Shown here piece after piece: positions 18,825 to 21,707 of a stretch of 29,784 bases of DNA. The notes below the pieces were generated by a model. It did not search any database. It was given only the letters and a program-made list of their open reading frames with translations, and was not told the DNA's origin. The position numbers and the translations under genes are program-made. Origin of the DNA: a virus; the IMG/VR virus record IMGVR_UViG_3300035698_000329, positions 1-29,784 of that record. One strand, written 5' to 3'. The first letter of the stretch is position 1. Each line of letters starts with the position of its first letter.

Positions 18825-21707
18825 TCAATCCTTCCTGAAAACCTTGGTGGTGAATCCCGCTGAGCCTAGCGGAAGATCGGGAGCCCAGCGAGGGTGTTCT
18901 TCCATGCACTCGATCAAGAGCGCCAGATCGCGGTCGGCGTTGGCCTCTTCGGTCACACAGATGATTTGGTCATGGACATGGAGCCGGATGTCCAACTGAT
19001 ACCGCTTGTGCGCCAGCATCATGCCGTTCCCCAGCAGGTCGCGGCTGATCGCTTGGTCCACGTTCTCTGTCAGCTTGCCCGGGTGCGTCTGCTGCCTGAC
19101 CCACTGCTTGCGCTCGTTGAGCCCCATGTAGGTGATCGTGTCCTTCATGTCGCCCCACGGGGCCTTACGCTTCTCAATCTTCGGGTGCTTGTAGTGAAGG
19201 TGACGGCCCGAGGGCAGCTTGATCCGCATGTACGGACCCTTGATGTCAAACGTGACCTGATCGAACGGTACGGGCTTGCCTGTGCGGATGCACTTCATGG
19301 CCGCGTCTTGGATGGCGTACCAGTAAGTCTTGACCTCTTTGAACTCCCGGCGGAACGTGTCCACGCTCAGCTTGGACTCCTCTGGCGTGAAGTGCTTGAC
19401 GCCCATGCCCCAAGCGTACCCGAGCAGGCCGGTCGCTTCGATCTCGCCTGTCTTCTCGTCCTCGTAAATCTGCCCGGGGCCGAGCATGTAGCCACAGTTA
19501 TGGGCTACGAGGCAACCATCGTCCGTCAGGACCGCGAACCGGGCATAGTCCCCGGTATTCAGGATGTCCCAAGTGTCTGCGGTTTCTGTTTTGCTCGGAA
19601 CGAGTTGCAAGTCGCAAGTTCCCCCGTTCGTAGTGCCCGTCGTTATCCGTTCTATCGACTTCCAGCCTACCGTCCGCTCCGAGATCGTCAAAGACGTGCT
19701 CGACCCAATCGAAAGAGGTGCTGAAGCGCATGAGTATTCCACGCCCTCCGTAGTAGCGATAGTTGTGATCCTCGGGGTTCTCGCAACGCGATCTCGCAGC
19801 ATAGAAACGACCTGCGAGTACGTCGAAAAGTTCCGCTCCAATCCTCTTTCCGAGATCGGAGCGACGGTTAGCCGAAGCGCATCCGGTGCAACTTCTGGAT
19901 AATCCTCGCACGAGGTTTGGTCTTGGTATGACTCGTTCTCGACCACATTTGCAGGAGCAAAGAAATAGCTTTCCGGTGCTCCGGGAAGAACCTTTTCCTT
20001 CGAGAACACGCCATTCCCCATACCGAGAGCCGACTTGAACGTCGGTTGCTGGAACACCGATTGGCACTCTTGCCATCCTTCTTGCGTAAGAAACCTGTGA
20101 TCAGGAGTAGCATGTAACCCGGACCTACTCAACACTTCTTGGTGCCCTTTGAAAACAACACCTTCATGCCGTACCCACTTCGCCCCGTCATGCAACCAAT
20201 CGTCATGGCAGAGTTCCACGAGAGCCTTCCAGCCCCGATGGGTCAGCACAGGGGTCTCTCCCTTCAGGCAGCCGAGAACGCCCGGCTTTGCGATGGTCCG
20301 CTTGGCCCCGTCGCCCGCATAATACTCTGCGATCAGCTTGTCGTAGGGCTGGTGGAACAGGTAGGTGGCGAAGTCCACGTAGGGGTCTCTGCCATGCTCG
20401 AAGACCGCAAGAATTTTACGGCACCGAGCCATCCAACCGAGCACCCTGTTCTCGATTGCGTTGAGGTCGGCGTCGATGAACATCATGCCGTCCGGGGCCT
20501 GCGAGGCCGGGCGGATGCAAGAGGCCAGCACGTCGAAGGTGTTGGGGTAGATCAGTTCGATTGATTCTCTGTCCAGCTTGGCGATATTGGCCGCGTGGAT
20601 TTCGATGCCCTTCTCGTACCGCTTCTCCGGGCGTGGGAGGTTCTGCGCCTGAAAGAGGCGACCGGCCCAGCGTGCGGTTCTCTGCGCCCCGGCGAACTGC
20701 AAGGTGTAGCGGAGCAGCCCGGACTGACCGTTGCCCTCCGGGACCGTGGCCTTCTGCAAGGCGTGGAATTTCTTGATCGACGAGCGTGAGAGTTCGAGCC
20801 TCAGATCGAGGGTCTCCATGAGTTCCGTGTTATACTGGAACTCCATCCACTGCATCTCGTCCCAATGGTCTGGCTTCTGATCGAAGTACGACCGCGCCTG
20901 TTTGACGTGGCCCTTCTTCAGGTCGTCGAACGGGTAGCCTTGGGACTGCAACCACGGCAGCAATTGCTTAGGCGACATGGGGTTCGCAAGCCGGGTCAGT
21001 TCTTGCATCTGGCGGAAGCCGATGGCGTATGATTCGTCGTACAGCTTGACCGCGTTGTGGACCATCTCAAGGTTGATCGGCAGTCCGCGACGGTTGATCG
21101 TCTGGTCCAGTTCCCACAGTTCCCACTCGTGATCCGGGGGCGCGTAGGGGTCGATCAGTTTCTTGATCTCGTACTCTGCGTCCGTGTCACCACGGTTGTA
21201 TTCCAGATAGCCTTCCCAATCTTCGAGGGCCTGATACCAGTACGTTCTGATCATCTCGCCCATGGACGCTTTGCGCCGCGACTTCGTTTCCATGGAGAAC
21301 TTGCGCATCAGTTTGGAGCCTGTCGCCAGCTTCAGCTTATCCATGGGGATGCCGACCGCTGGGCCTGCCTTTGCAAGCTGGCCGGGGTACGCGCAAAGCT
21401 GGGCCATCGCCATGGTGCAGCGCCACTGTGACACGTCCACAGGTACACCCAGACAGTTCTCGGTGACGTTCATCTCAAAGGGGGCGTTCCATGCCCACTT
21501 CTGCACCTCTGGGTCCACCAGAGCCTCACCGAACCACTTGGGCATGTCCTGACCTTCAGCGGGTATCCACTGCTGCTGCCGGGTGCCGTTGAGGATGGGG
21601 GCCATCATGAGAACTTCGGTGCTCGGGTCGCGTGAGTACACGTCGGAGCCGACCTTCGTCAGATCGGTCTTGCTGAAGGTCTCATAGTCGAAGTTCAGGA
21701 TGTCCAT
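18825..21707 (-). CDS. Family A DNA polymerase interrupted by an intein
   Basis: The 960-residue precursor has a 479-residue N-extein, a 258-residue intein and a 223-residue C-extein. The spliced enzyme of 702 residues is the size of T7-type polymerases. The N-terminal 3'-5' exonuclease shows LNFDYETFS (Asp7, Glu9), AWNAPFEMNV and EYNRGDTDAEYEI. Polymerase motif A is MFIDADLNAIENRV (Asp412). Motif B is RTIAKPGVLG (Arg470, Lys474) continued after splicing by CGYMLGPG. Motif C is RLHVHDQIICVTEE. The intein splits motif B between Lys474 and the Tyr of CGY, so the precursor should be inactive until spliced. The start overlaps the upstream stop as TAATG, with AAGGA before it. Confidence 0.95.
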   Translation of the reverse strand: MDILNFDYETFSKTDLTKVGSDVYSRDPSTEVLMMAPILNGTRQQQWIPAEGQDMPKWFGEALVDPEVQKWAWNAPFEMNVTENCLGVPVDVSQWRCTMAMAQLCAYPGQLAKAGPAVGIPMDKLKLATGSKLMRKFSMETKSRRKASMGEMIRTYWYQALEDWEGYLEYNRGDTDAEYEIKKLIDPYAPPDHEWELWELDQTINRRGLPINLEMVHNAVKLYDESYAIGFRQMQELTRLANPMSPKQLLPWLQSQGYPFDDLKKGHVKQARSYFDQKPDHWDEMQWMEFQYNTELMETLDLRLELSRSSIKKFHALQKATVPEGNGQSGLLRYTLQFAGAQRTARWAGRLFQAQNLPRPEKRYEKGIEIHAANIAKLDRESIELIYPNTFDVLASCIRPASQAPDGMMFIDADLNAIENRVLGWMARCRKILAVFEHGRDPYVDFATYLFHQPYDKLIAEYYAGDGAKRTIAKPGVLGCLKGETPVLTHRGWKALVELCHDDWLHDGAKWVRHEGVVFKGHQEVLSRSGLHATPDHRFLTQEGWQECQSVFQQPTFKSALGMGNGVFSKEKVLPGAPESYFFAPANVVENESYQDQTSCEDYPEVAPDALRLTVAPISERGLERNFSTYSQVVSMLRDRVARTPRITTIATTEGVEYSCASAPLSIGSSTSLTISERTVGWKSIERITTGTTNGGTCDLQLVPSKTETADTWDILNTGDYARFAVLTDDGCLVAHNCGYMLGPGQIYEDEKTGEIEATGLLGYAWGMGVKHFTPEESKLSVDTFRREFKEVKTYWYAIQDAAMKCIRTGKPVPFDQVTFDIKGPYMRIKLPSGRHLHYKHPKIEKRKAPWGDMKDTITYMGLNERKQWVRQQTHPGKLTENVDQAISRDLLGNGMMLAHKRYQLDIRLHVHDQIICVTEEANADRDLALLIECMEEHPRWAPDLPLGSAGFTTKVFRKD
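19498..20076 (-). CDS. HNH homing endonuclease nested out of frame in the intein
   Basis: A 192-residue protein is read on the same strand as the polymerase but in another frame (codons begin at the third base of polymerase codons). Residues 14-26 are QVGSRYGEWRVLE. Cysteines C40, C42, C44, C63 and C66 (LCSCKCGRE ... SRSCTGC) form a zinc-ribbon-like start typical of phage HNH proteins. Residues 95-115 read RSRCENPEDHNYRYYGGRGI. The HNH-like core is VDRTDNDGHYERGNLRLATR with EQNRNRR after it. The TAA stop (19500-19498) overlaps the last two intein codons. It uses AGA, CGA and GGA codons often, unlike neighbours. ATG 20076 or GTG 20067 may start it. It likely cuts intein-free polymerase alleles. 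Confidence 0.9.
   Translation of the reverse strand: MARVPIGVPATDVQVGSRYGEWRVLEGKGSSRSTGKLFLCSCKCGRERVIPRPNLVRGLSRSCTGCASANRRSDLGKRIGAELFDVLAGRFYAARSRCENPEDHNYRYYGGRGILMRFSTSFDWVEHVFDDLGADGRLEVDRTDNDGHYERGNLRLATRSEQNRNRRHLGHPEYRGLCPVRGPDGRWLPRSP
20077..20083 (-). promoter_or_regulatory. Internal ribosome site for the nested HNH gene
   Basis: The coding strand reads AAGAAGG directly before ATG 20076, too close for that codon. The fourth HNH codon is GTG (20067), which is 9 bases from this site, a workable spacing. The site is itself inside intein codons just after block B. In the HNH frame a TGA lies eight codons above the ATG, so translation must begin, or shift frame, in this short interval. 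Confidence 0.6.

What the first reader, a model, noticed from the sequence alone, without database searches (positions are those of the whole stretch)
19497..20270. Intein whose homing endonuclease is encoded out of frame inside it
The polymerase intein has blocks A, B, F and G but no endonuclease in its own frame. A complete 192-residue HNH-type endonuclease lies wholly inside it on the same strand in another frame. Known endonuclease-bearing inteins usually carry the enzyme in frame as a domain of the same protein. Here 579 of 774 bases are dual-coding, so one DNA segment would give both a splicing linker and a separate homing enzyme. I cannot check whether this layout has been described.
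Basis: partly seen in the sequence, partly recalled or inferred. Interest (0 to 1): 0.96.

Follow-up and report, generated by a model that had tools for sequence, protein, structure and literature searches.

The report
Intein hiding an out-of-frame homing enzyme
A phage DNA polymerase gene carries a self-splicing insert whose DNA also spells, in another reading frame, a separate HNH-type endonuclease that probably copies the insert into new phages; the same two-in-one layout turned up in over a hundred phage and prophage loci, some of which have gone on to become split inteins.

Summary
Confirmed, and far more general than one window. The PolA gene (18825-21707, - strand) holds a 258-aa intein (19497-20270). 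A 189-aa HNH-family ORF (20067-19498) lies inside it in frame +2. The reported ATG at 20076 is probably not the start: the conserved start is the GTG at 20067. The intein frame folds as a Hint domain with a disordered linker; the HNH frame folds well. Among 91 distinct intact inteins found in viral contigs, every HNH found was out of frame (66 in +2, 25 in +1). Thirteen named phages show the same, including APSE-1, Sodalis SO-1 and Jersey-like Salmonella phages. So do 15 of 17 prophage loci; the other two are mini-inteins without HNH. Substitution phase switches from intein codon position 3 to HNH codon position 3 where the HNH frame begins, and both frames are constrained over blocks F/G. Some relatives are split: N-intein and C-intein are separate ORFs with the HNH between. 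Closest precedent: the ShiLan out-of-frame HNH insertion, which is not an intein. A 2025 preprint on 'non-canonical' actinophage inteins could not be read. Expression, splicing and cleavage are inferred. New variant of a known kind.

The parts
18825..21707 (-). Family A DNA polymerase ORF (960 aa) interrupted by the intein; N-extein 20271-21707, C-extein 18825-19496
   Evidence: PHROG 17 DNA polymerase E=8e-94; 79% aa identity to intein-free Synechococcus virus S-ESS1 polymerase
19497..20270 (-). Intein, 258 aa, read in the polymerase frame; inserted before Cys in KPGVLG^CGYMLGPG (polymerase motif B region)
   Evidence: RecA mini-intein profile match E=2e-5; Foldseek: the top 35 matches are intein or Hint-fold structures; empty site in S-ESS1
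20229..20270 (-). Block A CLKGETPVLTHRGW, nucleophile Cys1
   Evidence: invariant Cys1 in 70 relatives
20085..20120 (-). Block B GLHATPDHRFLT (TxxH)
   Evidence: T55 and H58 invariant
19605..20000 (-). Intein-frame linker, residues 91-222, predicted disordered; overlaps the HNH core
   Evidence: pLDDT under 50 over most of it; substitutions follow the HNH frame
19527..19574 (-). Block F (TWDILNTGDYARFAVL, residues 233-248)
   Evidence: D235, R244 invariant; pLDDT over 90
19497..19523 (-). Block G (DDGCLVAHN) with terminal His-Asn; the HNH stop codon TAA lies inside the His-Asn codons CATAAC
20077..20083 (-). Shine-Dalgarno-like AAGAAGG, 9 nt before the GTG; part of the intein codons for Gln-Glu-Gly-Trp
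   Evidence: duplex energy -7.9 kcal/mol, -7.6 to -10.0 in close relatives; not stronger than the intein's amino acids alone predict
19498..20067 (-). HNH-family endonuclease ORF, frame +2 to the intein, 189 aa from GTG (the open frame with the reported ATG begins at 20076)
   Evidence: PHROG 374 E=5e-30, 54 of 54 relatives match it; purifying selection in this frame; model pLDDT 81.5; conserved start
19879..19953 (-). Likely zinc-binding Cys cluster of the HNH protein (C42, C44, C63, C66 in 192-aa numbering)
   Evidence: C42, C44, C66 invariant, C63 at least 90%
19576..19761 (-). HNH core, Y106 to R167 (YYGGRGI ... LEVDRTDNDGHYERGNLRLATRSEQNRNRR)
   Evidence: R142, Y149, N153 invariant in 54 relatives

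Best explanation
This is a mobile intein in which the homing endonuclease is a separate protein encoded by the same DNA in a different reading frame, instead of a domain of the intein. Translation in the polymerase frame gives a precursor whose Hint splicing domain (residues 1-90 and 223-258) cuts itself out and rejoins the polymerase; the DNA in between is read only as a disordered linker that must merely stay open. Internal initiation at the GTG at 20067, on the same mRNA, gives a 189-aa HNH-family protein. That protein would cut intein-free polymerase alleles in co-infecting phages, and repair would copy the whole insert. Shown here: both frames, their conservation, the shift of substitution phase, the predicted folds, recurrence in many phages, and HNH identity that exceeds host-gene identity in several pairs. 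Inferred: splicing, internal initiation, cleavage, and that this HNH moves this intein.
For: Two frames with separate family matches: HNH frame PHROG 374 E=5e-30; intein frame matches RecA mini-intein structures at E=2e-5 as a profile and the intein fold in Foldseek. Intein-frame model: pLDDT about 90-96 for the first 80 residues and the last ~30, under 50 in most of the linker; HNH-frame model: 81.5. Recurrence: 77 viral loci with HNH in +2, 26 in +1, none in frame (66 + 25 = 91 distinct intact inteins); 13 named phages from about ten host genera; 15 of 17 prophage loci. Phase test on 26 independent pairs: before the HNH start, substitutions per codon at intein positions 1,2,3 are .19/.13/.40; over the HNH core they are .19/.13/.36 at HNH positions 1,2,3, so the peak moves onto intein position 2; over the last 40 codons .23/.13/.26, so both frames are constrained. 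Mobility: window vs L168 polymerase N-extein 45% identical but HNH 78%; L040 vs L053 74% and 96%; L032 vs L053 67% and 93%. Empty site in S-ESS1. Conserved start at intein nt 203 in the window and four relatives; L010 has a stop just before it. The conserved intein motifs WDGxEW and EGW themselves supply an SD-like stretch and an ATG/GTG in the +2 frame, which may explain why +2 recurs. Mini-inteins without HNH (133-135 aa, L190, L194) suggest that the overlapped DNA is dispensable for the intein.
Against: No transcript, protein, splicing or cleavage data. The canonical first His of the HNH motif is absent; the family has invariant Arg142, Tyr149 and Asn153 and a near-invariant Asp141 instead, so catalysis is not established. 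The SD-like site is no stronger than the intein's own amino acids predict, so it is not independent evidence of translation. The HNH model had no convincing match in solved structures; PacI appears only weakly (E=0.42, Z 4.2). Window vs L008 shows no excess of HNH over extein identity (74% vs 76%), as expected for vertical descent.
Confidence: 0.83

Rival explanations
1. The HNH ORF is intact but no longer serves this intein: it is a relic, or a nuclease that acts elsewhere, and the intein moves passively.
For: No assay; canonical HNH first His absent; one relative, L052, has the HNH frame broken by a stop.
Against: Purifying selection in the HNH frame over 26 independent pairs; the HNH is the best conserved part in pairs with diverged polymerases; loss is visible as deletion to mini-inteins.
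Confidence: 0.1
2. The HNH is made by ribosomal frameshifting from the intein frame, as an N-intein-HNH fusion, not by internal initiation.
For: The HNH frame overlaps an upstream translated frame, so frameshifting is possible in principle.
Against: No -1 slippery heptamer at the overlap in 12 loci examined; a conserved ATG/GTG with SD-like site in the window group and at intein nt 92 in the others; L010 has a stop directly before its GTG.
Confidence: 0.04
3. The insert is a group I intron carrying an HNH gene, as the Sodalis phage SO-1 record says (gp38/gp39).
For: SO-1 note 'type I self-splicing intron'; HNH genes are common in group I introns.
Against: No Rfam intron match in the window or in L001, L002, L005, L008, L168, L174; the intein frame is open throughout with invariant splicing residues and an intein fold.
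Confidence: 0.02
4. Assembly or sequencing error displaced an ordinary in-frame HNH domain.
For: Only possible for a single contig.
Against: Same layout in more than 100 loci, including finished phage genomes.
Confidence: 0.01

Closest known systems
ShiLan domain and Pacc40 gp60 insertion: out-of-frame HNH in phage methylases (Arsenault, Gosselin, Gogarten 2025, PMC11855218)
   Same: HNH endonuclease in another frame of an insert that stays open in the host-gene frame; ShiLan ends in TAAC with TAA as HNH stop, exactly as in the window group; HNH with zinc fingers; inferred to be homing
   Different: Authors found no intein or intron splicing domain in ShiLan. Here the host frame is a full intein with conserved splicing residues and a Hint fold. 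ShiLan may be a degenerate relative (my inference).
Hamiltonella phage APSE-1 P45/P46 and Sodalis phage SO-1 gp38/gp39 (GenBank annotations)
   Same: HNH CDS annotated inside the polymerase CDS in another frame; same intein and HNH families
   Different: The records do not call it an intein with a nested homing gene; SO-1 says intron. Whether the original papers say more could not be checked.
Fractured genes / split inteins with a free-standing endonuclease between the halves (Dassa et al. 2009, known to me; not readable here)
   Same: Relatives L033, L037, L052, L085, L115, L124 have N-intein ORF, HNH ORF, C-intein ORF
   Different: In the window the intein is still contiguous and the nuclease gene lies wholly inside it in another frame
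Canonical homing inteins (LAGLIDADG or in-frame HNH domain between blocks B and F)
   Same: Blocks A, B, F, G; nuclease coded between B and the C-terminus; mobile distribution
   Different: Nuclease is a separate protein in another frame and its gene runs over blocks F and G to the last codons

Membership tests
Intein (protein-splicing element) | Cys1/Ser1, block B TxxH, C-terminal His-Asn, Cys/Ser/Thr+1 | tested here: met
   Invariant in 70 relatives; window sequence
Intein (protein-splicing element) | Hint fold | tested here: met
   AF2 model; the top 35 Foldseek PDB matches are inteins or Hint-fold domains, probability up to 1.00 but E-values 3e-3 and weaker
Intein (protein-splicing element) | Intein-free homologs with a seamless extein at the same site | tested here: met
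   S-ESS1 KPGVLGCGY
Intein (protein-splicing element) | Splices in vivo or in vitro | not testable with these tools
   no experiment
HNH homing endonuclease | Profile match to phage HNH families | tested here: met
   PHROG 374 E=5e-30; 54 of 54 relatives match PHROG 374, 3377, 2081
HNH homing endonuclease | Canonical His-Asn-His triad | tested here: inconclusive
   No conserved first His; Asp141-Arg142, Tyr149 and Asn153 conserved instead
HNH homing endonuclease | beta-beta-alpha-metal fold | tested here: inconclusive
   Model pLDDT 81.5; only a weak match to PacI, Z 4.2
HNH homing endonuclease | Mobility: element more similar than its host genes | tested here: met
   W-L168 45% vs 78%; L040-L053 74% vs 96%; L032-L053 67% vs 93%
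HNH homing endonuclease | Cuts the intein-free allele | not testable with these tools
   no experiment
Canonical homing intein with in-frame endonuclease domain | Nuclease in the intein's own frame | tested here: not met
   None in frame among 103 contiguous loci, 13 named phages or 17 prophage loci
Group I intron with HNH ORF | Intron RNA fold | tested here: not met
   No Rfam match
ShiLan-type out-of-frame HNH insertion without splicing domain | No splicing domain in the host frame | tested here: not met
   Splicing domain present here

The most novel reading that the evidence does not exclude
Out-of-frame nesting of a homing gene is a general, so far unrecognised architecture of phage inteins with more than one origin (+1 and +2 frames). 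Because the nuclease no longer depends on the intein frame, the linker can gain stop codons while a new start arises before the C-intein. That would be the path from contiguous inteins to natural split inteins with a nuclease gene between the halves ('fractured genes'), caught here in all stages: mini-intein, nested, split.
Probability: 0.35. Interest if true: 0.87.

Novelty: new variant of a known kind. Interest (0 to 1): 0.76.

Why it matters
It changes what an 'endonuclease-free' intein means: many phage inteins that look like inteins without a nuclease carry a full homing gene in another frame, missed by annotation (for example in Jersey-like Salmonella phages). It gives a natural test bed for dual-coding evolution with a clear prediction for each codon position, and it offers a sequence-level series from contiguous to split inteins, whose origin is an open question. 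It also suggests that the ShiLan element could be a remnant of such inteins.

Tried and rejected
Group I intron: no Rfam hit. Frameshift fusion: no slippery heptamers. SD selected beyond the protein sequence: not supported, mean percentiles 0.36 and 0.56. Pfam on either frame: no hit for the intein or the HNH of the window; scattered weak Hint hits in relatives. NCBIfam intein_Nterm: weak in 23 of 70. HNH fold search in PDB by Foldseek and VIA-align: nothing convincing. Papers for APSE, Dassa 2009 and the Gosselin 2025 preprint were not held. The careful HNH tree did not finish; only the quick tree was used.

Full report
What is there. The window is a 29.8-kb virus record whose polymerase is nearest to that of Synechococcus virus S-ESS1 (79% aa identity, no intein). 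The polymerase gene 18825-21707 (-) contains a 258-aa insert, 19497-20270, read in frame, beginning CLKGETPVLTHRGW and ending LVAHN before Cys. Wholly inside it, in frame +2 and on the same strand, is an ORF matching PHROG 374 'HNH endonuclease' at E=5e-30. The other reading (polymerase frame) has no HNH match.

The host frame is an intein. In an alignment of 70 relatives, Cys1, Thr55 and His58 (block B), Asp235, Arg244, His257 and Asn258 are invariant. The profile matches RecA mini-intein structures (E=2e-5). The AlphaFold model has high confidence for about residues 1-88 and 226-258 and is disordered in between; the top 35 Foldseek matches are inteins or Hint-fold domains. The HNH frame gives a model with pLDDT 81.5.

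The start codon. The reported ATG (20076) is not shared: L088 and L168 have GTG there, and in L010 the HNH frame contains a stop after it. The window and its four close relatives share GTG or ATG at intein nt 203, window 20067, 9 nt after an SD-like AAGAAGG / GAGGG / GGAGGG. The product is 189 aa. Its stop codon TAA lies in the last His-Asn codons of the intein (CATAAC).

It is widespread. HMMs of the two intein ends and of the HNH were run on stop-to-stop ORFs of all loci. Of contiguous inteins, 77 have HNH in +2, 26 in +1, none in frame; 91 are distinct (66 in +2, 25 in +1). Thirteen named phages show it: SO-1, MR14, Vibrio 97.13, EBPR siphovirus 2, LP31, EP23, Ijeoma, templet, APSE-1, Javan101, Caulobacter RW, SFCi1, Gardnerella AB1. 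Among 17 bacterial-genome loci, 15 have it and two are mini-inteins of 133-135 aa without HNH. Host proteins are PolA at several sites, DNA helicases and a DnaB-like helicase. L014 and L066 carry two such inteins in one polymerase, one +2 and one +1. In a quick tree the +1 cases fall in two groups, one among free-standing HNH genes, so the layout probably arose more than once. The loci were found by a motif of the intein (WDGxEW), so the counts describe this intein family, not all inteins.

Both frames are selected. With the HNH protein fixed and synonymous codons shuffled, the expected number of loci with an open intein frame is 0.93 of 91. Caveat: these loci were selected as open, and about seven others are split. 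The better test is phase (26 independent pairs). In the intein before the HNH starts, substitutions per codon at intein positions 1, 2, 3 are .19.13.40. In the HNH core, at HNH positions 1, 2, 3, they are .19.13.36, so the fast position is now intein position 2. In the last 40 codons, where blocks F and G overlap the HNH tail, HNH positions 1 and 3 are similar (.23.26): both frames hold. So the linker is largely free as a protein, and the HNH is not.

It moves. Window and L168 polymerases are 45% identical over the N-extein but their HNH is 78% identical; L040/L053 74% and 96%; L032/L053 67% and 93%. S-ESS1 provides the empty site KPGVLG^CGYMLG.

How it works, most likely. The precursor splices by its Hint domain; the HNH is made by internal initiation on the same mRNA and drives homing. 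The conserved WDGxEW and EGW motifs of the intein contain, in the +2 frame, SD-like sequence and a start codon: a start codon at nt 92 is present in all 66 +2 inteins, although in the window a stop closes that frame before nt 170. The SD strength is fully explained by the intein's amino acids. I read this as a ready-made start that makes +2 a favoured frame (inference).

Split relatives. L033 has seven stops in the linker, an N-intein ORF, an intact HNH ORF and a C-intein ORF with ATG and SD-like AAGGA. L037, L052, L085, L115 and L124 have heavily interrupted linkers and the same three-ORF order. L069 is split with a GIY-YIG-like ORF between the halves (my reading of the translation). This series suggests a route from nested to split inteins.

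What is known. The ShiLan domain is an out-of-frame HNH in a methylase without a splicing domain (PMC11855218). Its authors cite a preprint on actinophage inteins with 'non-canonical architecture' that is not held; it may describe something similar. GenBank records of APSE-1 and SO-1 already list the HNH inside the polymerase. I found no held paper that describes an intein with its nuclease in another frame. Hence 'new variant of a known kind'.

Noticed in passing
L069:3200-4010: Split PolA intein with no HNH; between the halves, out of frame, lies an ORF with GIY-YIG-like motifs (GIYRIKN...VYIGQS), so the layout is not limited to HNH.
   Followed up: partly
L037, L052, L085:1718-3852: One polymerase carries a split intein upstream (HNH overlapping both halves) and a contiguous intein with nested +2 HNH downstream; in L052 the downstream HNH frame is broken by a stop.
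   Followed up: partly
L014:3001-5250; L066:3001-5166: Two inteins in one polymerase gene, each with its own out-of-frame HNH, one in +2 and one in +1.
   Followed up: partly
L190:3001-3399; L194:685-1089; L183:2186-2587: Mini-inteins of about 134 aa of the same family without HNH, probably deletion derivatives.
   Followed up: no
L006:4440-4660: The S-ESS1 polymerase is annotated as two overlapping CDS with a frame change near locus 4647; a sequencing error or real frameshift.
   Followed up: no
window 19497-19500: The window group's intein ends in TAAC with TAA as HNH stop, the same ending reported for the ShiLan domain; ShiLan may be a remnant of such an intein.
   Followed up: no
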